Source: Telmatactis stephensoni
Lineage: Eukaryota; Cnidaria; Anthozoa; Actiniaria; Isophelliidae
Assembly (NCBI GenBank): GCA_029948255.1
Contig: JALIZF010000942.1
Location: 47,925-111,924 of the forward strand
Length of the DNA stretch: 64,000 nucleotides
Direction: 5' to 3'
Position numbers and translations under genes: made by a program
In this document: piece after piece, positions 20,860 to 48,500 of the stretch
Layout: every line of letters begins with the position of its first letter
How positions within the stretch are numbered: the first letter of the stretch is position 1
The notes under the pieces: generated by a model
What the model was told of the DNA's origin: nothing
Databases searched by the model: none
Seen by the model: only the letters and a program-made list of their open reading frames with translations

Positions 20860-20930
20860 TTTGAATTTTGAGAATATTGCGGGGTATTGTGGGAAATCAA
20901 CCCCCACACACAGGAATCCCAAACTTAGTT

Positions 20931-21523
20931 GTTTTGTTTTGTTTTGTTTTGTTTTGTTTTGTTTTGTTTTGTTTTGTTTTGTTTTGTTTTGTTTTGTTTT
21001 GTTTTGTTTTGTTTTGTTTTGTTTTGTTTTGTTTTGTTTTGTTTTGTTTTGTTTTGTTTTGTTTTGTTTTGTTTTGTTTTGTTTTGTTTTGTTTTGTTTT
21101 GTTTTGTTTTGTTTTGTTTTGTTTTGTTTTGTTTTGTTTTGTTTTGTTTTGTTTTGTTTTGTTTTGTTTTGTTTTGTTTTGTTTGTTTTGTTTTGTTTTG
21201 TTTTGTTTTGTTTTGTTTTGTTTTGTTTTGTTTTGTTTTGTTTTGTTTTGTTTTGTTTTGTTTTGTTTTGTTTTGTTTTGTTTTGTTTTGTTTTGTTTTG
21301 TTTTGTTTTGTTTTGTTTTGTTTTGTTTTGTTTTGTTTTGTTTTGTTTTGTTTTGTTTTGTTTTGTTTTGTTTTGTTTTGTTTTGTTTTGTTTTGTTTTG
21401 TTTTGTTTTGTTTTGTTTTGTTTTGTTTTGTTTTGTTTTGTTTTGTTTGTTTTGTTTTGTTTTGTTTTGTTTTGTTTTGTTTTGTTTTGTTTTGTTTTGT
21501 TTTGTTTTGTTTTGTTTTGTTTT
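20931..21523. repeat. 593-bp (TTTTG)n pentanucleotide array
   Basis: Counting by position: 50 GTTTT units, one four-base GTTT, 52 GTTTT units, a second GTTT, then 15 GTTTT units (117 five-base units in all). The array starts 72 bases upstream of the RRS1 start codon, so on the sense strand it is (AAAAC)n in the proximal promoter or 5' UTR. It yields long artificial FVLFC and TKQNK frames on both strands. Confidence 0.98.
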
Positions 21524-21525
21524 GT

Positions 21526-23152
21526 TAATTCCAGCTTTCAATTGTCATTTACTTTTAGGTTAGTCAGTTATCGTACTTCACAACTACACTTCCCGGCAAA
21601 TTGTACTACCGGATCTTATCGCCACGTAGCCAAACGACCCCCAATCCCCTTGGAATCCCTCCCATGCCACGTACAATAATACACAGGTAACAAGTAATAA
21701 ATGAAAATTTATTTCATTTCAGTAGCTTTCCTGTTCCTGATCTAAGTATAAGACCTGATTACCACAAGTGTGATGCTGCACAATGGCTTATCTGGCAAAA
21801 GTTTTATAGAATCCATAGCGTATCGTGTCATATCAGGGAATTATGAAATAACCATCATATAACGCGCGCTCTCATTGGCCGAAGGACGCGTATACTGCGA
21901 CCTCTAAATATGCACACAGCACGCGCGTGCGTACTTTTTCAAACTTTAAGTCAGTGTAAATGAATACTGAATATGCTTGAAAATAATGTTGTATTTTATA
22001 AAAGAAATAGAAAACCTACCCGCTGTTCTTTGTGCAGATTTAGAGCACTTAGGCATTGATCAGAACACTTGAGAAGCATGTTCTGATCAATCCCCGCGTG
22101 CTCTAAATCTGCACGCAGCACGCGCGCGCGTTTTCTATTTCTTCATTTCAGCATCTAGGATGAGAATTTTATTCGCTGGTTTTGGTATCAGGATTCAGGC
22201 TACTGCAGTTCACTACAATCCCGATAATTTTGAAAACGCACATTTTTTGCTATGGTTAGGCCTTCCTCACCACATAAAAACGTTTCTCTTTTGTGTAAGG
22301 TAAACGGAGAAAAAATATGCGTTTTCAACACCCGGACTAGTGTGAATGTAGCCTCAGATTCAGGAGGGAAAACTACGGAAGCAAGCTGGACAAATATCAA
22401 TTGTTGGACAAGGGTCCGCTTTAGTATAAAGAAGTATGTACAGCGTCTTCGAAGCAAAAAGTTCATTGACGCCCTTATTCTTATTGCACCCTCTGATAAT
22501 TTTATATACAATTTTAACTCAAGAAAAACATCGATTAGAAAGGAAATAAAGGAAACTAAAGGAAAATTCGGTTAATTTAAAATAATAATCATAAAGCAAG
22601 GTGGTGACAGAATTGAGGAGCAAGTAGTACAAATGGTATGAGCGAGGCATTTTTCTTAGATATGGGGGCGCGGTTAAGTGGAGGGGTGCAGGGGGTCAGT
22701 ACACCCTCTTGAGACAACTTTGAATTCTTTTCTTATCGACACTTTCCCAAAATATCCTCTTTGATCCTCTATAGATTAGTATCAATAGACACTTAATTCT
22801 TTCTCGTGTGGAATTATTACAAGTTTTCAAAAGAATTCTTTCTGGATGGAAGCTCATGAAAGCAGGTTTGCACCCCAGTGAAACGCAGATAATAAAATGC
22901 ATAGACTTTTAACAGTTGAGTTGATAGCAACCTATAGAGGGTTTGTGATTTCTGTAAGCTGCACCACCAACTGAAAAATTCACATATGAAGGTCCACGAC
23001 CAGTACCAGGGTCAGCTAAGTGTTTGGGCTTTCACGAGTCACGAAGCGAATTTGAGATCGAGGATTGACCCGTCACCACCCTGTACACAAAAATATTGAA
23101 ACATTTTCGCATCGCAGAAGGATGCCATCTTTCATCATTCTTAATATCGTCT

Positions 23153-23155
<3 letters not shown>
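21526..23155. other. Intergenic stretch between the RRS1-type gene and the channel gene
   Basis: No supported exon. 22001-22144 is a fold-back element (AAAGAAATAGAAAAC and TGCAGATTTAGAGCAC paired with their complements). 22235-22385 includes GTTTTCAACACCCGGACTAGTGTGAATG, the look of a DNA-transposon terminal repeat; the 107-codon frames there on both strands are not convincing. 22655-22880 resembles the degenerate GGGGGTGCA/CACCCTC element seen again at 61980-62135. The 3' UTR of the channel gene should lie near 22.9-23.2 kb, but I cannot place its poly(A) signal. Confidence 0.5.
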
Positions 23156-23191
<36 letters not shown>

Positions 23192-23210: not shown

Positions 23211-26200
23211 TTATAACGCTTCAGTTTCTTCTCTATTTTTGCTTTTTGCTTTGAAAAAGTTCTTGGAGGGAAGTATGTCGCTCATATTGGGTAGAAGTTG
23301 AGAAGATTGTCCTGCTTTGTTCTCGGAGGATATCAATCGTTCTTGTCGCTGTTGGCCTTCTCTCTCGTAGATTCCCTCAACTGTACTGCAGCAGCTTTCG
23401 CATAGATTTTGGACTTCAGAGTTTGTCATAATGTACTTCAAATTTCTCTCCTCCAACTCTTTTTCATCTGAAATGAAAAAATATGCGCTTTTTGGTTTCT
23501 TATATTGTTTCATATATTGTAAAGTTCTTATGATTTCGTAGTAGTGTGCGTGAATTGTTGGTAGATTTTTCAGATATGAAGGCCAGATGCAGATTGAGAA
23601 CAACCGACGCCATCCACTTTACTCAATTCGGGTTGAACCGTCAGTCTTTCGTGCAGGGGCCGCCACTATTAAGAAAGATTAAGGAGATCCCGGTGTATGT
23701 TACAACACTACAAGGCCCACAGCAATAGAAGATATCTGGTCATAAATATGTCTGCCTTAGAGGGAGTTCGTGTGCATTACAAAGCACCTATTTCTTGCGG
23801 ATACGCCTATACGCAGCCATTCTAACTTACCGTAATTAATACGACTTCCCTTTTGATTTTTGCAAAATCTTATGAGATAAAATTACCTTCACTGTCGATT
23901 TGATTTTTCTTGATTAAGTTTGGCCTGTAGTAAAAGTACTCCCAGACCACACCAACTCCTGTCATGACGCTGAATAAAGCAATCAAAATAATGAAGAATT
24001 CCGCATCTTCAAATAGGCTTCTTCCCTGTACGACTTCATCTTTGGATATGGTTGCGTTTGATAAAACCTAAAACAAACAAAAAATCTTATGTTTCCACTA
24101 GCTGGCTACAAATATCTTATGTTACCACTAGCCTACCTACAAAGTGAGAGGTGAGGATTCATTTAGACGGAGGGAGAGGAATTTCCTGTGAAAATTCCGA
24201 GGCGAGAAGATTTGACATGAAATGGGGAAGAGAAAAATGACGCTTCTCTGACGTTCTCTTTTTTCCCTCCCTAGTAGTCCCTAGTCTCTTTCTCTTCCAA
24301 TTTTACAAAGGAAACTCCAACCTAATGGGTTATCTACGAAAGCCAGAGAAAAACACGAAGAAAAAAAAAGCTTTTTCCCCTTGACAATGTCATCCATCCT
24401 CAGGGACCCAGGGCGAAAGGGGAGGGGAGGGAAAAGGACGGAAGGACCGGAAGGACCGGAGGAGGAGGGGGAAGGAAAGGGAAAGGGGAAAAGGACGTCC
24501 TTTTCCCCTTTCCCTTTCCTTCCCCCTCCCCCTCCCCCTTCGGTCCTTCGGTCCTTTCCCCTCCCCCTCCCCTTTCGCCCTGGGTCCCCGAGGATGAATG
24601 TCATCAGGAAAGAAAATTTCTTAGTTCATTCATCCTTCAATACATATGTCGTAGCGACATGAATTTTAACACTAACATAAACAATCTCAAGCCTAGGTTA
24701 ATTCTAAAAAATCAAATCTTTTCATCACTGAAAATATGTTTCCATATCGTGGCCGAAACTGAAAAAATCACTGTAACTGAAAACAAAAATCCCATCACTG
24801 AAAAATTTGGCCATCTTATGGCTAATAATATAATCTACAGTGGTCCTCGAGGTACAGTACATAGGGAGAAGCTCAATACAGTTGTCTTCGAGTTGGACTC
24901 CATGCCATGTCGGATAGTCGGGATGGAGTTACCTGCGGTGCTCATCATTTCTACAAGTATAAGCCAGGATTTTGTCGACTTTGGAAAACTTTACACATCT
25001 CAAAGTAAGCTTTTTCAGTATGCTCTATATATGTATCCGTATTCGGCTTTGTATAAAAATGATTTGCGGTAACTAGAAATAACCAAACTTGGTTACCTAC
25101 TTGGTACTTAAATTAAGAACCATATATTCTCATAATGCAATATTGTACTATATGTGTGCGAGGAAGGGGCTACTCTGTTGACTGACCTGAAGTAAGATGT
25201 CTTTAAAAGGGTTTCCGTTAACAAGCTCTTCCATGCAGCCTTTGACAGGGACACACATTTCAGGTTTCTCCATAAGAAGTCTTATTCCCCAGTTGAATCC
25301 ATAGTCGATCATTTTGCCAATCTCTAGCGAGTCATCGTCAATGATTTTATAATCACTGACCACTACGTGTTTATCGATTAAGAAGCCTTCAACTTTCTTG
25401 TGTCGAAGCGCTTCAATGATGTCCTCTAATTTGTTGAATTCTATTCGTTATTGTAAAGTAAAAAGATATAAAAGACATGATAAACAGTGCATGACTGGCT
25501 TTACTACCAAAAACACCGACGGCACGTTTTCTTATATGCGAGCGCAGTCGTTTTCAAAGCCGTATTAGGACGTGAGAAAACTTCAAATGCATGAAATTCT
25601 AACACCAACTACGGCGGACTTGAAAAACTCATGACGTTCTCATCGTTATTACCTAATTTGGGGGATGGGAGAAGGTAGGAGGAGGTGTCCTCTCAAGGAA
25701 ACGGAGGTTTGAGATTGTAGATTCTTAATGAAATCCTCCAAGCAACCAAATTCAAGTTTACGGATAGAATTAGTACTTCAGAAGTCCAAGAAACTGTGCT
25801 TGTTGCCCCTAGCTTTGACTGTGATTTTTAAAGTGCCTATAACGTCTACGAGATTAGTATATATTTTGAATATTTTATATGTTGAAAATTACTCTTCAAA
25901 TAAATTTCGTCAATCGGCCGTATATCTTCTGAGATATGAAAGTTTGAAATGTCAAAATGCAAATAAAGTGACGTCATTTACGGGATAATTTATTATACAA
26001 AAACATTAGAGTGCAAACTACTTAAATTTTGACATTTGCAACTCATTTCCATAAATGAAACATATGGTTTAGTAAAGATTTTGGTTATTTAGTCTAAGAG
26101 CACTTGCTGTAAACGTAACAAGCATTTAGGTCAAATCCCGTAAATGACGTCATCTCATTTGCATTTTGAAATTTCAAACCTTCATATCTCAGAAAATATA

Positions 26201-29200
26201 CGGCCGATAGACGAAATTTTATTTGAAGGGTTATTTTCAACACACAAAGATTCAAAATATATACTAATCTCGTAGACGTTATTCTTGGGTTGCATGTGAC
26301 GTCACGGCAGCCATCTTGGATGAACTTCAACAAAAGATTTCTCATTAGCGTCTTTTGTTTGTTCATCCAACTTGGCTACCCCTTCATTGTCTTTTGATTC
26401 CCAAAGGAATGGATGAAACCCAGCAATAGGGACTTTAATTTTTTTTACAAGCAACTTACCCAAAAACTTTCCACCGACATCTACAGCAACCTGACGGTCA
26501 ATACTTCCTTTGAGAACTGCAATCTGTGGAAGACAACACCATAAACTACCATAAAACGACTGTTAGATAACAAAGTTAGCGATGTTAGCATGCAGGGAGA
26601 TTCAAAAGTTCCTGCTCACCATTTTTACCTTTTTGTTGAACAAATTCAGGTCGGTCTCGATCTCACGTGCCAGCGATGAAGTAAAGTTTGCTGTGAGTAC
26701 AGAGAATGCTACAAGGCCAAGCAACATCCATAAGATGCTGAACATTCGTGCGGGGACTGATTTTGGTGCAAGATCTCCATATCTGGTAGAAGAGAAGAAA
26801 GATTAAAATTGTTATACACTTACGGTGTGCATGCATCGATCGAGTTCGAGCTGCACGTGGGATATTGCTTAGCACCAAAGAAGCGAAGGAGTCACACGGG
26901 GCATAGGGGTAGTCGTACGTGTTACGGGACTAGTCCGAGATCACTTTGACCACGACATTATTCCATACCTTTGAGTTTAACAAACTTTGTATTTTAAATT
27001 CCTTTGACTCGTACAATAGCAAACAACTACTAACAACAACTATTATAGACTACAAGGCTTATTACAGACGGAAGTATTTCTGGCAATCGGTAGAGCCACA
27101 GTCCATGCAAACCAGGCTTATGTTACACTGTTAAACATTACCATTTAAGGGTGTACTGACATACAACAATTGCCCAATCGCCCATTGGAAAATGCTCTAA
27201 AATGCCTCTAAATTGTCAAAACCCTTTTACATTTTATAGTTTGTCTTCCTTGAGGAGAGTTTAACATTTTGTGACGTCATTGCGTGAAGTTATCATACTA
27301 CGTCATAGTTACAGAAAAAAGCTATGATTTTCTTTAGCAATGTACATTGGAGAATTGTAAATACATTAACTAAATTTTAAGATCAAGGTGAATAATGCCA
27401 AGCATGCATGCGTTTTAAGAATGGTCTCCAAATAAATTTAATATGATTTGTTAAATGTTTAAATTGAGCGAATAATGCAAATATCTTTCGTATTTCTTGA
27501 TTTTTCGTAAATCCTATGCTTAACGTTGACGAAAAAGCTGTAAATGAAATCATGGATCTTTTTAAGATCCATGATGAAATAAATATTGAAGAAACACTTA
27601 GTTCTGACAAAAAACCGTCGAAGACCATAGCTTTTTAAAGAAACCGGAAGTAAAGTGTCCCGCGCATGTGCAATAAAAACGAAAATGAGTTCTTTTTGTC
27701 AGGTGTGCGTGGCTCTACCAGAAGTCAAATGATTCCCGCCAAAAACGCGCGTGCGCCTATTCAATTTGGCCGGCCAAACAAGACCCTATTTTGCATACAA
27801 CCGTTGCACAGCAACGACATATGCATAAACATCTCCACAAGCATCTCCAGATCTAGTATGATCCCGAGCTGACCGATGAAACTTTTCCGCACAACCTTGA
27901 CCATGGAGTCTTATTTGTACTATAGACTCTAGCTGCATACTAAACGTCAACCTTGCTTAAGTTTCCATCACATAATGCAACTATATGCATGTAGTTGTGC
28001 AAAAACTGGGTTGTACACTGAAATTCGCCCAATATATATAAACATGTTCATCCCATAAAACATAAACGATTCTATAATGAAACCTGGAAGTATTTGTGGA
28101 TCTTACGAATCTAGAACTAAGATGAAATGCATAATGTAGCACAACCTTGGATAACCCTAGGGTATCTATATGCGGTTGGTCCTGCCCCCAGTGTGAGGTC
28201 CAACAACTAGCCATAACAAAGCAACCCAAGACTGTCTCAAAAATCTATGTCACGAAAAGTCCCTAGCAAAAATTATTAATAGACTACACAAAATTATTGC
28301 AAATATAAAATGCATAAAAAAGTGTTGCGTAACAGTCGAGGTCAGTCTATACTAGCTTCGTGAATGTTTACCAACCAAACAAGTACCAGTGCACCAACTC
28401 AAGTATGTTAAGGCCTGGGTTGAAGGCCAATTACGGCTAAAATCGATTTATTTTTCTTCTGACTTCGTTTTTTGCCCAGTCCTCACCAAAATTTGCATGG
28501 ATGCATAACTTCATGACCTTAACATTTTAGGATGAAAAGTTTGGGGATTTGGTGGTCACGTGACCCTGAAAATCACTTCGATGCACCCTCAAAACGTGAA
28601 CTAAAATGGGGTGATGGCTATCACCTGTACTTGAAATGTTGTAGCATTTTTTAACTTCTCCCTCTAAGAGGTATATGAATCTGCCTTAACACCTGAACCA
28701 CCATTGCTCATTTAGGAGATATTATGCAAAATAGGTCACGTGACCTGCTTGTTCAATCAAACATTTTCAAATACCTCCTAAATGAGCAATGGTGGTTCAG
28801 GTGTTAAGGCAGATTCATATACCTCTTAGAGGGAGAACTGAAAATATACCACAATGTTTCAAGTACAGATGATAACCATCACCCCATTTTAATTCAAAAT
28901 CAAGGTGAGGTTCAAAGTCACGTGACCACCAAATCCCCAAACTTTTCACCCTAAAATCTTAAGGTCGTGAAGTTACATGCCCATGCCAATTTTTGTACGT
29001 TTTAAAACGTAAACGACATCAGAACAAAAATAAATTGATTTTAGACCCCCCACAAAGAATTCCCAGGCCTTAACATACTTGAGAAAAACTCGATAGATGC
29101 ACGCTAAGTGTGTATAAATCCTTTTATAACAAAGGCAGTTGAATAGAAAAGGCACATATTTTCGACTACGCGTACGGGTACGAGGTTTGAACGCGCGCGC

Positions 29201-32200
29201 AATTTCATCATTAATTAAAAAAGCCTGCAATATATCGTCTAATAGCGCAAGTTATCCATTTTTGCAATTATTTTAATAGTGTCAGGTTGCTTAGTGCATT
29301 ATTAGGCCAGATCGTGACAGAGTAGACAAAAGTGTCAAAATTTGAAAAACGTTGTGAATTTTATATAAATTTTAGACACAAAAACGTCGACAGCAAAGTC
29401 ATTCAACACAGGAAGCCCAATCTACGATTTTTTAACAATCTTTGACACCGAAAAAAATCGCTTACAAGAAAGAATTGCGGTGGGCACCGGCCCCAATATT
29501 GATTGTCCTGCGTGTACTAGTATTCTACATTCATGCAAATTTTTGCACTTTAGTCCGCTCTGTCAAGATCTTTTCCTTTATCTGCCTGACTATGTAATGA
29601 AAAAGGGAACTGATTCTTTGTAGTTTTCACATTTGACTACAAAGTTTAGCGATAACATGTTAAGTCGACGACATTTCGACGTTGTTCAAACGTCATTATC
29701 AAACTTTGTAGTAAAATGTTTGAACAAGAATCTACTTATTCGTATTTTCACATAATAGGCCCTTTGCAGCATATCATGTTGGAATGCAGCTCAATTTAGA
29801 GGGCAAAATAAAAAGAATTTCAATGTCCTATTGGCTGGAAACCATTGTTTTTGCCCTCCAAAATGCACTCATTCGCACGTGCTGCAAAGGGCCTATTTGC
29901 GAGCGCAATTAATCAGGGGACCAGTACAATGGATATTAAGACTGTATTGCCGTTGGAGGAATCAAAGAGTGGATGACGCGAAATGTTACTTTTTTAATTT
30001 ATCTAGATGTTGAATTGATTCAATTTTCTGGGCTATTTTTCTCAGACTGCTTTGTCGTCTTACCCCACGGTTGTCATGGTAACAAACGCCCACCAAAATC
30101 CCTGCCATGAGCCACGAATGAAAGGAGCTGGAAAGTCCACTGGATTTCTGCGTCGATCCTTAAACGATATCATAAAGTGAGCGGACACGAAAACCCATAC
30201 AATCCCGGACGTCAAAACTTCTTAGGACTTTCTCTGTTTCTAAAGATTTTTTGGATTGCTAAAGGAATTTAAATACAACATTTCTCAAAGAATATACCGC
30301 CTGACCCCCTCACCCCTTTTCAGCGTTGAGTCGGAAGGTTGTTATTGTGTTTGCAAGCCCTTTAACAACCTTTACAACATTGTATGGGCTGGGAAGGGTA
30401 AGGGAGAACGCCCAATTAAACAGAATATTCTAAGGGTCTGATTATATGAAGTGGGCTGGCCCGTTTAATCGGGCTGAATCGGCCGGGGTACGGTGGCTCT
30501 TTTCCAATGTCATCGCACCGACCGAATTATGTGTGGTTTATAGACAGCCAGTGTACTGACCCAGCTAGCCCGATTAACCAGGCCAGCCCGCTTCATATAA
30601 TCAAGCCCTATGCCAAAAAGTCCCTAGGGTTTTTGTCTGAAACTGTAGATATCTAAAACGGATATCCTTCGCTATGATAGGCATCTCTTGCTATGACATG
30701 CCTTCAGAAAAGCTATATGACACAACCCGAGTCTATTATAATCTTTAAGCATATATAACAAATTACTTGCGTGAATTACACATATTGGGCATGAAAATAT
30801 AGAAATCTTCGCAAATGTAACGCAGGAGATTAGTAAGTAAAGCGGTGTTTTGCTCAAAACTCTCAAGTGTTGTCCGGACGAACTTGAGGTGCGCGCGAAA
30901 TATCTGGATCAGCAAAAGTTATCGGAGAAACTGAATCCTTTATTGAGGAGCGCTATATTACTAACACGAGATTTATTCACGCGTTCATTATCAGCCGACA
31001 AGGAAAATTTTAGTCGGATAAAGAGGTTGTGCACTGTACAGGACAGGAGTTGCCCATAGACACTTTCATGATCAAATGATCGGAAACAGAGCACCAATTT
31101 ACAAAACACCAGTTTAACTGATGTAATATTAATCAGTATGTTGTCCAAGGCAGGTGGCAAAATAATTTCCAATCCATACCGCCCATAATATAAATTATTC
31201 TGGTTTTCAATCACACCAAAACTTACCAAAAGCCACATACAGATACCAGCAATGCCTGTTAATATGAGAGTGAGCCCAATAACTTGACCACCATTGATAA
31301 AAGACCCTGCTAGTTGATTAAGCGGTTTCTTGACATTTCGTCGCACCTGAAACCAATTAAAATATAGGGATTTTGTATACACATTGTCTTGTGATTGAGT
31401 TTCATGAACCACTTAGGCCTACGGTTTAACATCCTCCTGGTTAGAGCGATAACACTAAAACCGTGAAATAACTTAGCAACTAAATAGAGACAAATAGTAG
31501 CAAAACCCTTTGTTTTCTATTGTTTCATTAGTACTATTTGTACTTTTTAGTTAGTACTTGTTTCACGGTTTTAGTGTTATCGCTCTAGCCAGGAAGCTCT
31601 ATTTTTAGTGTCGTCCCCAGAGAAAAGGAAACAAAAGAGCTTTCCCAATTACAAGGGACAATTTGCTTTCATCTAAATTGCCTCTAAGGCCTAGTTCAAA
31701 CACCGCACCAGCCACTTTACAGGTGGTATGGTTGGCCTAGTGGTGAGAGCACTGGCCATTCAACGCTGTGGTCCAGGTCCGGGTAATGGTCTGTGGTTCG
31801 AGTTCCAGCTTGGGCGTTGGATTATATGTGAACTGAGTTTGTTGGTGTGTTGCTCTATACCACGTCAAGAGGTTTTTTCTCCTGGTTTTAATTCTCTTTT
31901 TTCCTCCCGTCAGCAAAAATCAGTGAGTTGAGGGTTGTTTGTAAAATATTGAATGTAGAGGTAGTGAGTGTGAGTGCCAGTAGATGAAGGACCACTATGT
32001 GGATATGCTGCTGCGAAAAGATTATTTGTTTTATTTATTATTTATATTTGGGGTCTGCTGCAGGTTCGATCTAGAATGGGCTAAAGACATTCATTACACC
32101 AGAACCAGTCGAACAACATGGCTCTCACAGGGCCGTAGCCACCATTTAAACATATTGGTACGGTTCTTAAAAGTTGGTCCGGTTTTTTCGCTTTTCTACA

Positions 32201-35200
32201 CGAATTCATGCTTTTAAAACTGTGAAAACAATGGTTCCAACGGTAAAAGTTGGTCCGGTTGAAACCTGACTAACCGTACCGGTGGCTTTGGCCCTGTCAT
32301 TGACTAAAATGAGAACGGACATGAAAGATGAGGTGTCTGAACTGGGCCTCAGACGAGACAATCGACGCTAATTGTTTCACAACAAAAACATTGGCAGAGA
32401 ATTCTGGTACTGGTAGCGTATGACACTATGACGCAAATGACCTATAGAAGGATATTAAGTTATTATTTTATAGTGAGTTTTTGAAATTGAATTTGAAGAA
32501 AGTCCAAAGTCCAGTCCATGTTTTAGTACATGCCACGAGTCCTGAGTATATCTGTGGACATATTTCATCTCTCAAAAACAAACAAGTGGGACGCTATTCA
32601 TTCATGAATTCAAAGTCTTCAAATCCATGACTCTTTCAATTCTGTCACTAAACACACTGCATCATGATTGACCATTTCTTGTAAATTATGCAGGGAGGAT
32701 TTTATAAAATATATCTAATATTACAAGAAGGTAAACAAAGCTATTTTAGCGGCACTAAATTGTTGTGTCTAAGAACTTCTATATCATTGATAAAAATTTC
32801 TAGAGCTGAAAGCTATAAATTGAAAAATTGCGAATTTGAAAATCCGATATCACTGAGCGTTATGTGAGAAATGGACCGCCTCAGTATACAGGGTGTGTCA
32901 AACGTTCGCGTCTTTTCTGGATAGAAAAGCTTGCATTGTAGTACGTAATAAAATATTAAATAATAAATAAATGATATTTTCACAGCAGCATATCTACATA
33001 GTGGTTCTTCATCTTCTGGCACTCACATGATGAGTTTTGCTGAGGGAGGAAAAACCGAAGAACCCGGAGAAAAAACCCTCGTGGCATGGTAGAGAACAAT
33101 ACATCAAACAAACTCAGTTCACGTATGATCCAGCGCCCGACCTGGGACTTGAACCCGGACCACAGCGGTGAATGACCAAAGCTCTCACCACTAGGCCAAC
33201 CATGCCACCCGTACGAATCAAATGTGGTAATTTTTCATACCTCCAAGAGTTATTACAATTAATGTCGCGGTTGGTAAATGAAGAAATAAAAATAAAAGAG
33301 GTCACGTAGGCTAGGTCTTCACCTCAATAGTGGACACAACATAGAAGAACCTTTGCGACCGGGGTAATTCGGCGCTTCAGTAGACCTCAGTAATAAAAAG
33401 TTATTCTAGATAAAAACGAGGACACGGACTTTTGAATCACCCTGTGTTGCGCGGGAGCATCTCTTTATGGATACCTCAATTAATGATGAAGAAACCTCCC
33501 TACAACTGACAGCTCTGATCCTGCTAGCTGGAAATCCATCCAGGAAGCAATATATTGTCATTTATGTTGTAAGAAATCAGTTACAAGAGAGTTACTTTGA
33601 CTAAAGGAGGTCAATGAAGGATTTTTTTGTGGTGAAGAAGGGGGCTGGAAGAATCAAAATAGGGACTTCGACTTTCAATATCCATAATGAAAAGACTCAA
33701 TTATATCTATAATCTATTTTATCTTTTGCGCTTTTCGAATGAAAGTAAGATAAAAAGACTGGTTTTTAAGGAATTGTTGAACATTGATAAAGAAAAATAG
33801 GTTTCAACCGCAAAAATAAGAAGAATGGTGATATATCTCTAGTCACTTGAAGTAAATTGGATGTATTGACCCCTCGAAGTCTAAAAGGTTTACGTACAAC
33901 ATATCAACTGAAGTCAATAATTAATGGAAGTAGACCGCATGGGGTACATTTCTAATGGAACAGATAGCTTTACGATAAATGCACTGAGTATATAATTGCA
34001 TCTCTCAAATATTCTTGGTATATCGTGGGCATTAAGAGGACCAGGGTAATATTCCCAATTCCCAAAACAATATATAGTCAATATCTAATGAATATAGAGA
34101 AATTACAATACACTGGAAAGCATATATAGAGCGCCCGCTGTAAGCCTAAGGTTATCTTAATGTATATATGTCTATATATTTTTTTAGTCAACGTGGTGGC
34201 ATCGAAGACGTTGATTACATGAAAATGAGTAGCTTGTAGTACTTAAGCTGGCGTTGGGCTTTCCGTATCAACGCGTACGCATCTGTAACTACTGAGAACA
34301 ACAGACGGCAAAGAAGATCACATAACCTGCTTTTCTCGCGCCTGGTGCGTTGAGCGTTAGGCGTTAAGTTAAGTGCGATGGTAACTTTTTTGGTTTACGG
34401 CAAATTACTTACCGCGTTTACGGCTACAACAGACGTACGCGAATTAAAACGCATCACGTGATTCGCGTCACGTGACTGTCTTGGCGTCTGCCGTTTCCCG
34501 CGCACAAGTACGACTAAACTACTTCACAAAATCATTTGATTTACGGTTTAACCCCAGGTTTAACGCGCTTCTTGAAAAACGATTTAGTAAAGTGGCATAA
34601 ATATTGGCCTTTGAGTGAACTCTGACCGGTCAGCTCGAGCACCTGTTGTTCTCTACATATACTGACCGCCCGGTTGGCTCAGTTGGTTGAGCGTCGGTCT
34701 CTCGTGCGGGAGGTCGGGGTTCGAATCCCGGCCGGACCAACACTCAGGGTCTTTAAATAATTGAGGAGAAGGTGCTGCCTTTGTAGTTACATCTGCAAAT
34801 GGTTAGACCTTCACGTCTTCTCGGATAAGGACGTTAAACCGTAGGCCCCGTCTGCTTTCACTCTGACCCTGCTTGTATAGTGGACGTAAAAGATCCTGTT
34901 GTACTGTTTGCAAAGAGTAGGGGATTGTTGCCCGGTACAACAGTCTGCATGCATGTCCTTACTTCTAACAAACTCTAAGCGCATTTGATTATATACATAT
35001 AGATATTTGCGCTATATAAATGCAAAAATTTCATCTTTTCATTTACTGAGAACAATTAAGCGAAAGAGTTGCACCTTTTCGGCATTTTTGAGACAAGAAA
35101 TCGCTTTTTCCAATAATTATTTCTGGTATTGAAATATAAATAAGGCTAGCAGTTCTCAACCTATATACCAGCCTCAAGCATTTTACACAATTTCATACCA

Positions 35201-37819
35201 GCGAAAAATATATTTTTTGGCGCCATCTATTACGCAGGGTTTCTTGTGATTGGTTAGTCTAAAATAAGGCATTTTTTTAAACTGTTTATTTAAGTGTCCA
35301 AGTCTTCTATAGCGCTTGCGCACTAATTGGGGGACACTGTACTCACACACACACACACACTACCTCTACATTAATTATTTTGCAAATAATCACTCGACTC
35401 ACATGTTGATTTTTGCTGAGGGAGGAAAAACCGGAGAACCCGGAGAAAAAACCCTTGAGAACAACACATCAAACAAACTTAATTTCACATATGATCCAGG
35501 CGCTCGAGCTGGGACTCGAACCCGGACCACAGCGGTGAAAGGGCAGCGCTCTAACCGCTCGGCCAACCATGCCACCCATTTCCCTGGCAATCAAATAGAG
35601 ATGTCAGTATGTAGTCCTTACCACATAAGCCAGTCCTGTGGACTCGTACACTTTGACCTTGCATGGGTCTTTGTCATTTGCATGAAAGACAATAGGTAGT
35701 GCGATTTTATTGGCTGATGTACTATCGATGGTTTTGACTTTGGATTGGTTTAGGATTGTCATAAATTCACTTGCTTTTCTGGGCCATTTTAGCTTCAGAG
35801 ATGTTGCAGTGTTTAAATGTTCAGTTAGCAGATTAAACAAGCCTAGAAAAAAAGATAAAATAAATCAGAAGATCCATAATAATGTGAAAGCAACAACTCA
35901 TAAGTTATTATTTCAGTGACAAAAAATGAAAATCCATATATCGATTATGAGAACACTTTTATGATCCATAATAAAATTCCAGCTATAATGCGCACCGTAA
36001 CCGCTTTTGGCTGTGCAGCTGTATCTGGGAATGGGGAAGGGGGGGGGGGGGGGGGAATTGAGGGGGGCCTGAGGAGGAGGAATGAGGTCTGCTTCTCCTC
36101 TCTTTCCCCTTCCAGCGGAGCCCAAGCCTTTGAGAGTCATATCCAACGTACAAATGCACAGCAATTACGACCTTAAGTAGTCATTTACGACAAAGTTACA
36201 CTTTAATTAAAATTTTTGCAAGGACAGACGTGGTCTCGATGAAAATGCTATCAAAGTTTTATCTATTGTTAACAATCCTCATCAATTTTCCTAAATATGT
36301 TCTAATTAAAAATTAAAATGTCATTATCCAATGACTATGACAAGTAATGAATGATATCAGAACAGTTCTTCTCCAGTTACTAATGCTACTGGACTTACTA
36401 GCTGCTCAGTAGTGGCTAAGGGTGTGGCTGTGGTATTCGATTGCTAAACCTCCTAATTAAAATAGATTCAAATGATAAAACGAAACGGATTGACTGAAAC
36501 ATTTGATAATAACTATAAGTCCAATGACAAGTGATTTCTGACACTTAGCTTTCTATATGTATGTTCTGTCATTATATTTGGCGCCAGAGGAGGACGTCGC
36601 GGTGACATCGAAACGTTTCTCGCTCGTTATGTCTTTAATATGTATTAGTCTATCTATTTGTTTACGGCGTCGCAAAAGATTAGCATTTGGTAGCTATTGA
36701 TATTTTCGGTGACCAAGGAAATGATCTTCGCAGGTCAATCCGTAGTCATTTGTAGCAAAAAATATTGCAAAGTATTAATTTCTCAAAGCTTGATAAATAC
36801 CAGAATCGAACTTTTTCCATGTAAGGTCCACTTAATTTTAACAATTTTTTACCCTTTTCTTTTGAATGCGAGGAAAACATTTTGCTTGCCCAAATATCTA
36901 AACTCATTTCCACTTTTCATGGCCACTTTCTGGCACCCAAGTGGCCATTCAAAACTATTTATACTCATTTAGCTCCAAGCACTGGCGAGTGAACTCAACA
37001 GCTGCTGTGGTGTGCAGAACAAGCTTAATTCTAGCATTTACAAAATTTCGCTTCACTTTGGGGAAAAACAATAATTAAAGATTAACGTAAAGTAACCGAC
37101 AGCTCCTTGAAAAACCAATTCTGGTGCATATGTGCATGACGGAATCAAAGAAAATCACTGAAACTCCTTTGTTTACTTTACGTCGCTATGGTAACACGGG
37201 TGGAATGTGCTTGTGACTTGGTACAGTGAGCCAAGAAATAAGCAAATGATAAGCAGAAATGTCAAAGACGAGAATAGGCTCTTAATATGCATTGTTTAAA
37301 ATTCTTGAAGAATCTGCCGGATATCTCATAGAAATTGTGGTATAACTTTGCATGATTATTCAGAGATACAGATGCCTTGCAAAATGTGATGCTTTTGGGT
37401 GTGAGCGAAGTGGCAGTAAACACATTTTTGTCAGAAACTTTTTCACAGAATGTCACGAGAATCTCGGAAGTTTTCCAATCTCTCAAGGAACCATGACAAA
37501 CAGAAGAACTTCAGTAATATTTTGAGCACCTCCGGGACAACATGTGCGTTTTTTTTGTCCTTTATTTTTCATCAAAGTCGAATTTTAATTTACAAGAATT
37601 TTGTAATAATTCCAAAAAATACGAAAGCTTACCTTTTGCCTGATGCTTGTGTTCTGTAGAATTACCCGTTGAATAAGGAAAAATCTCCCAAAAGTCGATG
37701 TCAAAATCGGTCTGATTTTGAAGAATATTCCGACATTTTGAAGCACCAGATAGAGTGTAAACACTGCAAGCAATGAAGATTACCAGAGTACACTTGCAAA
37801 AAGTAGTCTGCAAGGCCAT
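23211..37819 (-). CDS. GluR0-like ionotropic glutamate receptor with K+-channel filter, 510 aa
   Basis: Predicted ligand-gated channel subunit of the plasma membrane. Exons: 37819-37633, 35842-35622, 31346-31227, 30158-30064, 26782-26629, 26523-26460, 25440-25187, 24067-23887, 23467-23211. All junctions are GT/AG and in phase (1533 bases including stop). Layout: signal peptide (about 1-26, hydrophobic LVIFIACSVYTL), short S1 ligand lobe (to about 150), M1 (155-176), re-entrant pore loop GFWWAFVTMTTVGYGD (196-211), M3 (221-246, with SVLTANFTSSL matching the receptor SYTANLAAFL motif), S2 lobe (260-385), M4 (389-408), polar cytoplasmic tail. The filter TTVGYGD (205-211) is the potassium-channel signature, as in bacterial GluR0. 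There is no amino-terminal domain. In S2, FLID aligns with the conserved acidic ligand residue; the usual S1 Arg is not evident. The split codon GG|A inside the filter joins exons 4 and 5. Exon 4 uses the acceptor AAG|GATCG, because the nearer CAG|AAATCC breaks phase. Confidence 0.92.
24395..24597. mobile_element. G-rich/C-rich fold-back element
   Basis: CCTCAGGGACCCAGGGCGAAAGGGGAGG on the left is mirrored by CCCCTTTCGCCCTGGGTCCCCGAGG on the right, with a centre AAAAGGACGTCCTTTT. It lies in intron 7 of the channel gene and makes proline- and glycine-rich frames on both strands that are not genes. Confidence 0.85.
25843..26280. mobile_element. Fold-back element with 140-bp arms
   Basis: The left arm from ACGTCTACGAGATTAGTATA to TGACGTCATTTACGGG (25843-25983) returns as its complement at 26139-26280 with scattered differences. 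The middle (about 150 bases) is unpaired. It is in the intron between channel exons 6 and 7. The matching reading frames on opposite strands (each with RLVYILN) reflect the repeat. Confidence 0.85.
28405..29090. mobile_element. Long fold-back element, about 680 bp
   Basis: CTCAAGTATGTTAAGGCCTGGG on the left pairs with CCAGGCCTTAACATACTTGAG on the right. Inner segments also pair: GGTGGTCACGTGACC with its complement, CACCTGAACCACCATTGCTC with GAGCAATGGTGGTTCAGGTG, and TAAGAGGTATATGAATCTGC with its complement. The loop around 28735 is short. It is in the intron between channel exons 4 and 5. Confidence 0.88.
29750..29900. mobile_element. Inverted-repeat element with TAGGCCCTTTGCAGCA ends
   Basis: TAATAGGCCCTTTGCAGCA and the complement TGCTGCAAAGGGCCTATTTG flank about 115 bases. 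Inner arms GGCTGG..CCATTG are not clearly paired. It is in the intron between channel exons 4 and 5. Confidence 0.75.
30433..30610. mobile_element. 178-bp inverted-repeat element (GGGCTGATTATATGAAG)
   Basis: AGGGTCTGATTATATGAAGTGGGCTGGCC on the left matches the complement of GGCCAGCCCGCTTCATATAATCAAGCCCT on the right; CCGATTAA/TTAATCGG arms continue inward. It lies in channel intron 3, about 275 bases upstream of exon 4 in the sense direction. Confidence 0.85.
31436..31600. mobile_element. 165-bp inverted-repeat element (GAGCGATAACACTAAAACCG)
   Basis: CCTGGTTAGAGCGATAACACTAAAACCGTGAAA on the left and its complement TTTCACGGTTTTAGTGTTATCGCTCTAGCCAGG on the right, with a loop of about 95 bases. 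It lies 90 bases upstream of channel exon 3 in the sense direction. Confidence 0.9.
31722..32045 (+). mobile_element. tRNA-derived SINE, family A (variant tail)
   Basis: It begins GGTGGTATGGTTGGCCTAGTGGTGAGAGC (A-box-like) and has GGTTCGAGTTCC (B box), then the family body (AGTTTGTTGGTGTGTTGCTCT, TTTTCTCC, TCAGCAAAAATCA). Its 3' end differs from the main family: TGAGTGCCAGTAGATGAAGGACC, CTATGTGGATATGCTGCTG and a T/A-rich tail. The same tail occurs in the opposite orientation at 32935-33208. Confidence 0.85.
32127..32300. mobile_element. Inverted-repeat element (ACAGGGCCGTAGCCACC)
   Basis: ACAGGGCCGTAGCCACC pairs with GGTGGCTTTGGCCCTGT, and the inner GGTACGG..AAAAGTTGGTCCGG and CCGTACC segments are also related. 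About 174 bases, in channel intron 2. Confidence 0.75.
32935..33208 (-). mobile_element. tRNA-derived SINE, family A (variant tail), minus copy
   Basis: Read on the minus strand it starts GGGTGGCATGGTTGGCCTAGTGG, has GTCATTCACCGCTGTGG-type sequence, a GGTTCAAGTCCC B box, the TTTTTTCTCCGGGTTCTTCGG body and the CAGAAGATGAAGAACCACTATG tail of the 31.7-kb copy. The two copies form an inverted pair about 0.9 kb apart inside channel intron 2. Confidence 0.85.
33310..34660. other. Intronic stretch without recognised elements
   Basis: This is part of channel intron 2. It contains only AT-rich unique-looking sequence and, at 34250-34520, a GC-richer patch with CGTACGC, TCACGTGA and paired GACGGCAAAG/TGGCGTCTGCCG words, perhaps a decayed inverted repeat. 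No exon is seen. Confidence 0.4.
34662..35035 (+). mobile_element. tRNA-derived SINE, family B
   Basis: Head: CCCGGTTGGCTCAGTTGGTTGAGCG (A box) and GGTCGGGGTTCGAATCCCGG (B box). The body includes CTTCACGTCTTCTCGGATAAG, GACGTTAAACCGTAGGCCCCG, and AAAGATCCTGTTGTACTG; the tail is TTTGCGCTATATAAATGCAAA. About 370 bases, with both Pol III boxes intact. A partial relative is at 49145-49395 on the minus strand. It lies in channel intron 2. Confidence 0.88.
35281..35578 (-). mobile_element. tRNA-derived SINE, family A
   Basis: On the minus strand it runs from GGGTGGCATGGTTGGCCGAG (A box) through GGTTCGAGTCCCAGCTCGAGC (B box), TTTTTTCTCCGGG, TCCTCCCTCAGCAAAAATCAAC, GTAGAGGTAG, a (GT)n stretch, CAGTGTCCCCCAATTAGTGCG and GACACTTAAATAAACAGT. 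Full-length copy, ending 44 bases from channel exon 2 (35622). Confidence 0.92.
36030..36060. repeat. Run of 17 G in a G-rich patch
   Basis: A homopolymer of 17 G (36039-36055) lies between GGGAATGGGGAA and GGGGGGCCTGAGGAGG. It is in channel intron 1. Confidence 0.9.
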
Positions 37820-40054: not shown

Positions 40055-40409
40055 AGCTTGCCTGTAGTAAGTGTAGTATCTGTAGCACCTGTAGTAGGTG
40101 AAGTAGACCTAGTACAGTACTTCTCATAGCATAGGCTGTGTAAACGTAGTAGGTGTAGTATTTGTAGTAGGTGTAGTGGTTGTAGTTGGTGTAGCACCAC
40201 TAGTAGATGTTGTAGTACTTGTAGTAGGTGTAGTTTCTGTAGTTCGTGTAGTACCTGTAGTATCTATAGAACGTGTAGTACCTGTAGCACCTGTAGTAAG
40301 AAGGCTGTGTACACGTAGTGGGTGTAGTATTTGTAGTAGGTGTAGTGGTTGTAGTTGGTGTAGCACACATGGTAAGCGTAGTAGCAGTAGTATCTGTAGT
40401 ACCTATAGA
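40055..40409. repeat. Degenerate GTAGTA minisatellite, left block
   Basis: Short units of 6, 9 and 15 bases made from GTAGTA, CCTGTAGTA and GGTGTAGTA-type words. One strand reads as Val-rich, the other as Thr-rich (TTGTT, TTPTT), in several frames. No splice sites suggest an exon. The array is interrupted at 40410 by a LINE fragment and resumes at about 40785. Confidence 0.85.
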
Positions 40410-40787
40410 CAACTACGTTCCTGTAACCGATCACTCCTTGTCATCCCCACTGTCAGAACAAGTACCTATGGTCATCGCACATTCTCCTATGCAGCATCTA
40501 AATTATGGAATGATCTGCCTGAATCTATAAAAGCTTCACCTTCAGTGGCATCCTTTAAATCAAACATTAAGACATTTTTATTTAAAAAAACTTATTTTCC
40601 CCATGACACTTAGCGTAACTTATTTTATTTATTTATATTACTATAAATAATCTCAATTTTATTCATGAAATTTAGCACAATTTATTTATCTACGGATTAA
40701 TTACTTTTATTTATACACATATGTAAGCGCATTGAGCCATGTTAAATGCGCACTAAGTACATTAGTATTATTATTATTATTAGTGTA
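40410..40787 (+). mobile_element. LINE 3' fragment (end of reverse transcriptase ORF and 3' UTR)
   Basis: The frame ending at 40613 has the typical C-terminal tail of non-LTR retrotransposon ORF2 proteins: TVRTSTYGHRTFSYAAS, KLWNDLPESIK, SPSVASFKSNIKTFLFKK, then stop. The 3' UTR follows, ending GCGCACTAAGTACATTAGTATT and (TTA)n. It is severely 5'-truncated and has no catalytic domain left. The tail style resembles CR1/L2-type LINEs. It is inserted in the GTAGTA minisatellite. Confidence 0.85.
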
Positions 40788-45541: not shown

Positions 45542-48500
45542 TTAACATCGCCTACAGGTTTTCAAGCAATTCTTCTTGACATAATCGTTAGTATCACAGT
45601 AGCTCTGCCAATAACGGCATTTTTGGTCTTTGTCTTCACAAGACCCTGGAAACAAATTTTCATGCAAATTATAAATCAATCAAATTGTCCCGTAAAGTTG
45701 TATCCTGTGCTAAACAAGAGGTGACTGCATGTGTTTTATACGACTCTGAACGAGTTGCTGGTTCATCTTTCTGTTTTTGTTTTGCTCTTTCTTAGTGTTG
45801 CAGGGCATCTGAGGCATGAAGATGAACAATAAATCAATAAGAACTTGAAATGAAACAGTACTCAGCAATACAAGAGCTCAAACACAAAATTCAATACAGA
45901 ATACAACTTATAATTCAGTTTTTGACCTCCATTTAGTACGCTCTCAGCTCAGTCGACAATTGTTATGCTCTCTACATCTTTTCGATATCAAGGTTATATT
46001 ACAGTTAGATTTCGCCTACCTCCTCCTCCACCTCCTCCACCTCCTCCGCCTCCGCCCCCTCCTCCTCCATTCCTTCCTGAAATTAAGAAGGAACAAATAT
46101 TTTACAAATAATAATATTAATAATAATAATAATAATGATGATGATGATGACGACGATGATGATGATAATAATTTTACAATTTGATACACTAAAACACACC
46201 CTATCTATATAATTCAGAAACTGTTGCTTAGACATTGTCCGCAACTAGTACTAGTTTCAAAAAATTGTATATGAAAAATTATCAATAAAACCGACCATAA
46301 TAATAATAAAAAATTTGGGAAGCCAGTAAAATGCTTGAAAAGTCTTTTCTCTTTTGGAAGGTAGTGTCTGTCTTTTTCTCTAACACACTGAAATAACTGG
46401 TAAATTGTCTTTGAACAAGTGAAGTGTTTAAAGATTACCAGTACCAGGTGCTGCGTTAAATTAAAGCAGTACGAATGCTATTAAAAATGAACAATTTCCG
46501 CGATAAGTATGTTCTCGCATGCATTTATGTTAGCCAGTGAAATGCTGTGAAGAAAGCCAGCCTGCGTCAAAGTGCCGAGCGAAATCAATATACAAAGACA
46601 CAGCAAAATTGTTTCCTATAATCATGTTCTTCGTGTTCTAGCTAGTATAAACCGGCCCGTTGCAGTCAACAACCTCGTTCCCAGGATATCGAGAGGGCGC
46701 GCGAGAGGGCCCTGGGAACAAGGTTGTTGCAGTCAATACCCTTTCGTGTTCAATTTGGAGGAAAATAAAGAAATATTTTCAACTTCCATTCCAAGGAAAG
46801 AGGAATTTTGGGTTGGCATACAACAGAGCGCGAAATAATCATGAGTATACAACCTACCGTAATGAGCTTGAATGCCATTGATATCATCCTGTTGGAGCCT
46901 AAAGTTGGGAACATATCCAGTGTAGTATGGATACATAACAGCGTTTCTGACATCACTATGATGTAATCCAAGGGAGTGGCCAAACTCGTGGGTAGCGACC
47001 CATAAGAGGTTCGTGCCGTCTCTTGTTCCATCAGTGTAGCGTTCATCTTCATCAAAGTGAGCTCGTCCATCGCTGGGGAAGAAAGCATGAGCTAAAACTT
47101 TTCCAGGTCCATCGAATGGATAGGCACATCGTCGTTCGCTCTTTCCACCGTGGCTTCTATAGCCAAAGCTGAAAGGAAATATTGATTTTCGATGCTTGAA
47201 TAGTAATTATCTTTTGGTTTGGTTTGTTTGTTTGTTTGTTTGTTTGTTTTTGTTTTTGTTTTCTAGCGTAATTGTGTTTCTAGCGAGGAATTGTCATAAG
47301 GCAAGATCCTTGTTTGAATGTTCACTCGACGAGTTTCGAATCTCCTCGGCTGAATATATTCTGAAGCGACCTGTCTGCATTTGGCAGACGACGACAAAGC
47401 CCGCCGAGTATAACAGATCGAACGTATTTCAGCATGTCAAGTTTCACGTTCGCATGCTTAGCTGTTCTGATATAAATGAGTAGCCACTGCAAGACATAGA
47501 TAATTATGGCGGGTGGCATGGTTGCCGAGCGGTTACGGAGCGCTGGCCTTTCACCGGTATGGTCCGGGTTCGAGTCCCGGCCAGTTCGAGCACCTGGATC
47601 ATATGTGAATAGAGTTTGTTTGATGTGTTGTTTTCTACCATGCCACGAGGGTTTTTTCTCCGGTTTCTCCGGTTTTTCCTCCCTCAGCAAAAATCAACAT
47701 GTGAGCTGAGAGTTGTATGCTTAAAATCAGTGCAATGTAGAGGTAGTGTGTGTGAGATTACAGTGTCCCCCAATTAGTGCGCAAGCGCTAAAAGACTTGG
47801 ACACTTAAATAAACAGTTATTTAATTTTAATTTATAGCATTAACAAACTTTGAGGAGATGCTAAAAGCAAAGATGAAAAGTAAAACTAGACATTGCATAC
47901 GTACCTGATTTTAAGATCAGCTGAACTTGCCCTTGAAGCTCTTGAAAAACTCAATCCTGACACATCAGCCCAGTATTTAAGGGCTCTGGCAAAGATTCTG
48001 TCTTGTAAACTTTGGCTTAAATCGCGTCCATGCTCAACAAAGTAGGTCAGGTGTTTCTTACTCCACTTACTGCCTAGTTTATACCTTGGGAAAATACATT
48101 GAAGCATTATTTATAACACAAATATAATGAACGCAGAGCTAGGAAGAGCAAACCGAGGTGAATTATAAGGTCGTCTATGATAAATATCAGCTAAAATTTA
48201 GAATAAAGAGAATTAAGTCATGCAATGCAATCAGGGTGATTTGATGGAAGCATTAATGATTCTGTGAGTTTACCTTCGAATACGTGTTCCATCGCCGTCA
48301 ACGTCAGGCATTCCACATCTTGGTTTCTTCATTTGACGCACAGTGGCCTCATCAACTTCACCAGTAACTGGAAGACCAGCAAACCTTTGGAAGTTTTCAA
48401 TGGCGGTTTTAACATCGTGGTTTCCAGATCGTGATGGTGAGATGTAGTGGTACTGGCTAAGGTAATTCTGTGAAAAGAAAACGAAATAAGAAAAATACAA

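What the first reader, a model, noticed from the sequence alone, without database searches (positions are those of the whole stretch)
26629..30158. Animal glutamate-receptor-like channel with a potassium selectivity filter TTVGYGD
Exons 4 and 5 of the 23.2-37.8 kb gene join to give [16 protein letters not shown] between M1 and M3, with the receptor-type SVLTANFTSSL after it. Ordinary animal ionotropic glutamate receptors lack this signature. It is known from prokaryotic GluR0, and from memory it has been reported in a rotifer receptor. A complete, in-phase cnidarian-type gene suggests a ligand-gated K+ channel that would inhibit rather than excite.
Basis: partly seen in the sequence, partly recalled or inferred. 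Interest (0 to 1): 0.88.

Follow-up and report, generated by a model that had tools for sequence, protein, structure and literature searches.

The report
Sea-anemone receptor-like potassium channel gene
This sea-anemone-type gene encodes a channel built like the brain's glutamate receptors but carrying the pore of a potassium channel; it belongs to a wide and apparently undescribed animal family that probably quiets cells when a still unknown chemical binds.

Summary

It is not a modified ordinary receptor. Relatives span cnidarians, hemichordates, annelids and a brachiopod, and form a 100/100 clade apart from ordinary receptors of the same genome. The arginine that grips an amino acid's carboxylate is missing in this protein; the acid that grips the amine is kept. 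Best reading: an extracellularly gated K+ channel, hence inhibitory, whose ligand is probably not glutamate. Selectivity and gating are untested. Ten literature searches listed no description; GluR0 and rotifer AvGluR1 are the known precedents.

The parts
37633..37819 (-). Exon 1: start codon, signal peptide and start of lobe S1
   Evidence: hydrophobic N-terminus; aligns with Nematostella N-terminus
35622..35842 (-). Exon 2: rest of lobe S1; the stretch that holds the amino-acid-gripping Arg in GluR0-type proteins is missing or altered
31227..31346 (-). Exon 3: end of S1, pre-M1 and M1 (GGQVIGLTLILTGIAGICMWLL)
30064..30158 (-). Exon 4: M1-P linker (DRRRNP) and pore helix [12 protein letters not shown]
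26629..26782 (-). Exon 5: GYGD of the selectivity filter and M3 with SVLTANFTSSL
26460..26523 (-). Exon 6: start of lobe S2 (IAVLKGS...)
25187..25440 (-). Exon 7: main part of lobe S2, with the conserved amine-site acid D303 (GFLIDKHV)
23887..24067 (-). Exon 8: end of S2 and M4 (FFIILIALFSVMTGVGVVWEYFYY)
23211..23467 (-). Exon 9: cytoplasmic tail with a CxxC motif, stop codon

Best explanation
The gene encodes one subunit of a (presumably tetrameric) plasma-membrane K+ channel of the GluR0/iGluR architecture. Two extracellular lobes, S1 and S2, form a clamshell; ligand closing the clamshell pulls on M3 and opens a pore whose TTVGYGD filter passes K+, so the cell hyperpolarises. The ligand is unknown. 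It is probably not a plain alpha-amino acid, because the carboxylate-binding arginine is absent while the amine-binding acid is kept; an amine or another small metabolite is the first guess. It belongs to a family present in cnidarians and bilaterians that is separate from AMPA/kainate/delta/NMDA-type receptors. Shown: gene structure, filter, topology, fold of the lobes (by prediction, on two relatives), separate clade. Inferred: tetramer, K+ selectivity, ligand gating, inhibitory effect, ligand class.
Confidence: 0.66

Rival explanations
1. A K+ channel whose clamshell has lost small-ligand binding: a constitutive or otherwise regulated (pH, redox, partner protein) background K+ channel with an iGluR-shaped ectodomain.
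For: S1 Arg absent in the window and no R in that column in 82 of 89 aligned family members; lobes diverge fast while the pore is nearly frozen. Some relatives carry CUB, Ig or EGF domains in front, which suggests protein contacts.
Against: The S2 acid is kept in 85 of 89, and the clamshell fold is predicted; loss of the Arg with kept function is known, from memory, in insect ionotropic receptors.
Confidence: 0.2
2. An obligate partner subunit: it works only in heteromers with its paralogs or with ordinary iGluRs and sets the K+ selectivity of the mixed channel.
For: Several paralogs per species, e.g. six Nematostella rows at different positions in the tree; ordinary iGluRs exist in the same genome.
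Against: No expression data; nothing in the sequence demands a partner. Mixing with ordinary iGluR subunits would break a four-fold K+ filter.
Confidence: 0.1
3. An ordinary voltage-gated or two-pore K+ channel misread as a receptor.
For: PDB sequence matches and public names such as 'Potassium voltage-gated channel'.
Against: Only M1, M3 and M4 peaks after the signal peptide, one pore loop, no voltage sensor; lobes homologous to GluR0.
Confidence: 0.02
4. A degenerate gene or a chance exon join.
For: No transcript data for this species; long introns that hold repeats.
Against: Nine intact exons, canonical sites, orthologs conserved end to end; four unnamed orthologs of 519-533 aa (P0004, P0005, P0008, P0009) come from contigs of at most 2.2-4.0 kb, which look like transcripts (inference).
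Confidence: 0.02

Closest known systems
GluR0 (Synechocystis) and bacterial GluR0-like K+-selective glutamate receptors
   Different: Eukaryotic gene with introns, signal peptide, added M4 and cytoplasmic tail; S1 Arg absent; separate 100/100 clade
[quoted passage not shown] 2011; seen only as cited in PMC12332018 and PMC3483616)
   Different: AvGluR1's lobe is solved with glutamate, serine and phenylalanine (titles), so it takes amino acids; the window protein lacks the Arg. Full AvGluR1 sequence was not obtained, so kinship is untested.
Ordinary animal iGluRs (AMPA, kainate, delta, NMDA, epsilon, lambda)
   Same: Overall topology incl. M4; all 50 Foldseek rows shown
   Different: K+ filter; SYTANLAAF 3 of 9; no amino-terminal domain; separate clade from the nine ordinary rows tested. 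Epsilon and lambda receptors were not knowingly included in my trees.
Insect ionotropic receptors (IRs) (recalled, no call)
   Same: iGluR fold with loss of the amino-acid-gripping Arg, fast-evolving lobes
   Different: IRs are non-selective cation channels derived from ordinary iGluRs

Membership tests
iGluR/GluR0 superfamily | Two-lobed ligand-binding domain split by the pore (S1 before M1, S2 after M3) | tested here: met
   hhalign lobes only with reversed controls; AF2 + VIA of two relatives
iGluR/GluR0 superfamily | M1, re-entrant pore loop, M3 | tested here: met
   hydropathy and alignment; membrane orientation itself inferred from the signal peptide
Ordinary (SYTANLAAF) animal iGluRs | SYTANLAAF in M3 | tested here: not met
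   window VLTANFTSS, 3 of 9; 0 of 89 family members reach 4
Ordinary (SYTANLAAF) animal iGluRs | S1 Arg for the alpha-carboxylate | tested here: not met
   gap in the window; R in 7 of 89 animal-type rows against 55 of 56 bacterial
Ordinary (SYTANLAAF) animal iGluRs | S2 acidic residue for the alpha-amine | tested here: met
   D303; D/E in 85 of 89
Ordinary (SYTANLAAF) animal iGluRs | M4 after S2 | tested here: met
   peak at 389-407, helix in the model of the ortholog
Ordinary (SYTANLAAF) animal iGluRs | Groups with them in a tree | tested here: not met
   9 ordinary receptors (7 of the same genome, 2 of rat) form one clade 100/100, the 21 K-type rows another 100/100; whether the two are sisters is open (AU p 0.36-0.44)
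Ordinary (SYTANLAAF) animal iGluRs | Pfam Lig_chan over its cut-off | tested here: inconclusive
   30.5 against 30.8 bits with the 525-aa draft; of four other members scanned, P0062 and P0027 pass, P0019 and P0040 do not
GluR0-type K+ glutamate receptors | TxVGYG filter | tested here: met
   TTVGYGD
GluR0-type K+ glutamate receptors | Only two membrane segments, no M4 | tested here: not met
   M4 present
GluR0-type K+ glutamate receptors | Glutamate-gated K+ current | not testable with these tools
   needs expression
AvGluR1-type rotifer receptors | Sequence kinship with AvGluR1 | not tested
   AvGluR1 full sequence was not obtained; only its lobe structures appear
Voltage-gated K+ channels | Four-helix voltage sensor before the pore | tested here: not met
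   only a signal peptide and M1 before the pore
Two-pore (K2P) channels | Two pore loops per chain | tested here: not met
   one filter motif in the protein (draft model)

The most novel reading that the evidence does not exclude
[quoted passage not shown] It is a fast inhibitory mechanism that needs neither chloride nor a G protein. It stayed hidden because its M3 motif fails the SYTANLAAF rule used in a major receptor survey, it lacks the voltage sensor that defines the voltage-gated K+ channels surveyed, and some public names call members 'voltage-gated potassium channel'.
Probability: 0.5. Interest if true: 0.9.

Novelty: new variant of a known kind. Interest (0 to 1): 0.8.

Why it matters
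Textbook fast inhibition in animals uses chloride channels; direct ligand-gated K+ channels of the receptor type are known, in what I could read, from bacteria and one rotifer. A family spread over Cnidaria, hemichordates, annelids and a brachiopod would add a whole receptor class to early nervous systems, provide living intermediates between GluR0 and ordinary glutamate receptors (K+ filter together with M4), and supply testable genes in Nematostella, a tractable laboratory animal. It also suggests a blind spot: these genes fall between a survey of glutamate receptors and a survey of voltage-gated K+ channels.

Tried and rejected
The draft, not the final model, went into; the error lies between M1 and the pore and does not touch the filter or the lobes.

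I looked for missing S1 exons between 31.4 and 35.6 kb, thinking S1 too short; the family alignment shows S1 is complete in exons 1-3.

Plain K+ channel, K2P, pseudogene and chance join were considered and rejected (see rivals). Whether the K-type clade is sister to ordinary iGluRs or to some bacterial branch could not be settled: AU p 0.43 and 0.437 and 0.363. In one search the bootstrap had not settled (0.981), and rows L006-L008 are long branches (L007 and L008 meet). In one search one of 22 bacterial ids (P0113) was dropped for lack of a recognisable filter.

A count of the K-type paralogs in the window's own genome failed: the tool was busy at every protein or pattern request. The searches for relatives lean towards the pore words, so members without the K+ filter would be under-found; the near-universal filter in my lists is partly a result of that.

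Literature: ten searches of the open-licence PMC library. I saw their listings, which were capped (20 of 21; 25 of 28; 30 of 49; 15 of 51), and passages of six papers. None of this describes the family; two searches found 0 papers. Subscription papers and preprints are mostly not held, so a report elsewhere is possible.
Full report
WHAT IS THERE. The finding is real. On the minus strand the window holds a nine-exon gene from 37819 to 23211. Exons (high to low): 37819-37633, 35842-35622, 31346-31227, 30158-30064, 26782-26629, 26523-26460, 25440-25187, 24067-23887, 23467-23211. All introns begin GT and end AG, phases match, and the product is 510 aa with one stop. The filter TTV-GYGD is split by the 3.3 kb intron between 30064 and 26782, and TTVGYG exists nowhere in the window unspliced. 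Of 24 GT-AG joins around that intron, two stay open in frame and one gives the filter.

CONSERVATION. The protein is 70% identical to an Actinostola protein over 449 aligned columns, 63% to Actinia over 460 and 51% to Nematostella over 478. Identity is uneven: linker plus pore 38 of 39 and M3 29 of 30 against Actinostola, but S1 50 of 79, S2 79 of 125 and tail 53 of 93. The window is therefore from a sea anemone or a close relative (inference). Its assembly, G000, has 483.5 Mb in 1782 contigs.

THE FAMILY. The first search gave 139 proteins (120 listed): anthozoan proteins of 32-67% identity, then remoter cnidarian (hydrozoans and a scyphozoan included), hemichordate (Glandiceps, Saccoglossus, Ptychodera) and annelid (Dimorphilus, Owenia) proteins, then bacterial GluR0-like ones. 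A profile search gave 749 (120 listed) and added the brachiopod Lingula, with bacterial GluR0-like proteins from about 1e-43. A third gave 128 (120 listed) and a protein of the green alga Tetraselmis astigmatica with the filter. Where sources give names they include 'uncharacterized', 'hypothetical' and 'potassium voltage-gated channel'. Some members carry CUB and Ig domains or EGF repeats in front. TTVGYGD is exact in 116 of 121 animal-type hits, a set that includes many unlabelled proteins; of the other five, P0015 lacks the pore segment, three read STVGYGD and P0140 reads GTVGYGD. These searches favour proteins with the pore words, so this fraction is biased upward.

NOT AN ORDINARY RECEPTOR. 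The Pfam ligand-gated-channel family finds 50 exon matches in the same genome, 41 over its cut-off, none of them on the window's contig C1012. The eight best, L001-L008, are ordinary receptors with a YTANLAA or YTANLTA M3 and no K+ filter in the pore segments printed; a six-frame scan of those loci finds the four letters VGYG once in L003 and once in L008, outside the printed segments, not followed up. In a tree of 44 rows, seven of them (L005 dropped as the same exon as L004) with rat GluA2 and GluN1 form one clade at 100/100, and 21 K-type rows including the window form another at 100/100; the bootstrap of that run had not fully settled, and L006-L008 are long branches. A 43-row tree gives the K-type clade 100/100 with and without the filter columns. 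In a wider 65-row tree the window sits in a clade of nine rows (seven named anthozoans, the window and one unnamed) at 100/100, and six named bilaterian rows plus one unnamed form a clade at 100/96. So the gene family appears to predate the cnidarian-bilaterian split (inference). Whether it is sister to ordinary iGluRs is open (AU p 0.43, 0.437, 0.363).

THE LIGAND POCKET. eLife 2018 (PMC6307864, passages seen) names Arg485 and the acid at 705 as the residues that hold the amino-acid backbone. In the joint alignment the S1 arginine is present in 55 of 56 bacterial rows, absent (gap) in the window, and R in 7 of 89 animal-type rows in a gappy stretch; 5 of these 7 read DRxY and 4 of the 5 are CUB/Ig proteins, where an equivalent may survive. 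The S2 acid is D in 56 of 56 bacterial rows and D or E in 85 of 89 animal-type rows, D303 in the window. Hence a ligand with an amine but no alpha-carboxylate is a reasonable first guess, not a result. The 89 rows were chosen from my candidate list for having a recognisable filter and at least 120 residues before it.

MECHANISM. Best reading: ligand closes the clamshell, M3 opens, K+ leaves, the cell hyperpolarises. The filter, topology and fold are shown by sequence or prediction; tetramer, selectivity, gating and effect are inferred from GluR0, K+ channels and iGluRs. The main rival is a K+ channel whose clamshell no longer binds a small ligand. The tail has a CxxC motif in the window and in P0001-P0016 (17 of 18 examined; P0017, a 369-aa protein, lacks it); its role is unknown.

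WHAT IS KNOWN. PMC12332018 (passages) describes GluR0 as a bacterial glutamate-activated K+-selective channel with TXVGYG, and AvGluR1 of the rotifer Adineta vaga as having the architecture of eukaryotic iGluRs with the K+ signature; PMC3483616 (figure legend) marks the motif in both. PLoS One 2010 (PMC2950845, passages) reports prokaryotic groups with and without the K+ filter. PMC12226733 (12 of 13 passages) gives a broad eukaryotic iGluR phylogeny and mentions the K+ filter for GluR0. The original AvGluR1 paper is not held. The eLife survey set aside iGluR sequences with fewer than four residues of SYTANLAAF; the window has three, and none of the 89 family members reaches four, so that survey would have missed them (inference). 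A survey of cnidarian voltage-gated K+ channels describes its families by voltage sensors and does not contain the word glutamate (PMC9989356, term search and one passage). Ten searches of the library listed no description of this family; some listings were capped (see Tried and rejected).

VERDICT. Observation confirmed. Structural interpretation supported; inhibitory ligand gating plausible and untested; glutamate unlikely. New variant of a known kind (K+-filter receptors), with an unexpectedly wide animal distribution. Interest 0.8.

Noticed in passing
window 46733-47206 and 54537-55004, minus strand: Two closely similar open stretches with matrixin (Peptidase_M10) catalytic domains, E 3.6e-35 and 9.2e-34: probably neighbouring matrix-metalloproteinase genes on the 5' side of the channel gene.
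   Followed up: partly
window 20929-21526: A 598-base array of the pentamer TTGTT, 120 copies, 99% matches; it makes long spurious open frames on both strands.
   Followed up: no
window 23153-23191: A perfect ATC run of 13 copies just beyond the channel gene's stop codon, probably in its 3' untranslated region.
   Followed up: no
window 34667-34739, plus strand: A tRNA-Glu(CTC)-like gene lies in intron 2 of the channel gene, on the opposite strand; other repeats in these introns look tRNA-derived (by eye).
   Followed up: no
window 40113-40613, plus strand: Open stretch ending in a segment that resembles the end of LINE reverse-transcriptase proteins (from memory; no Pfam hit).
   Followed up: no
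P0198 (Tetraselmis astigmatica, green alga) and P0189, P0191, P0195, P0197 (unnamed): Further Lig_chan-type proteins with the TTVGYGD filter outside the named animal groups; they may show that K+-filter receptors are widespread in eukaryotes.
   Followed up: partly
exon 9 tail, window 23211-23467: A CxxC motif (LCESC) in the cytoplasmic tail is kept in the window and P0001-P0016, 17 of 18 examined; possible metal or lipid site, unexplained.
   Followed up: partly
L004 and L005 (G000 contigs C50 and C442): The same iGluR exon appears on two contigs, and contig pairs C529/C549 and C2/C776 repeat matches, suggesting uncollapsed haplotypes in the assembly.
   Followed up: no
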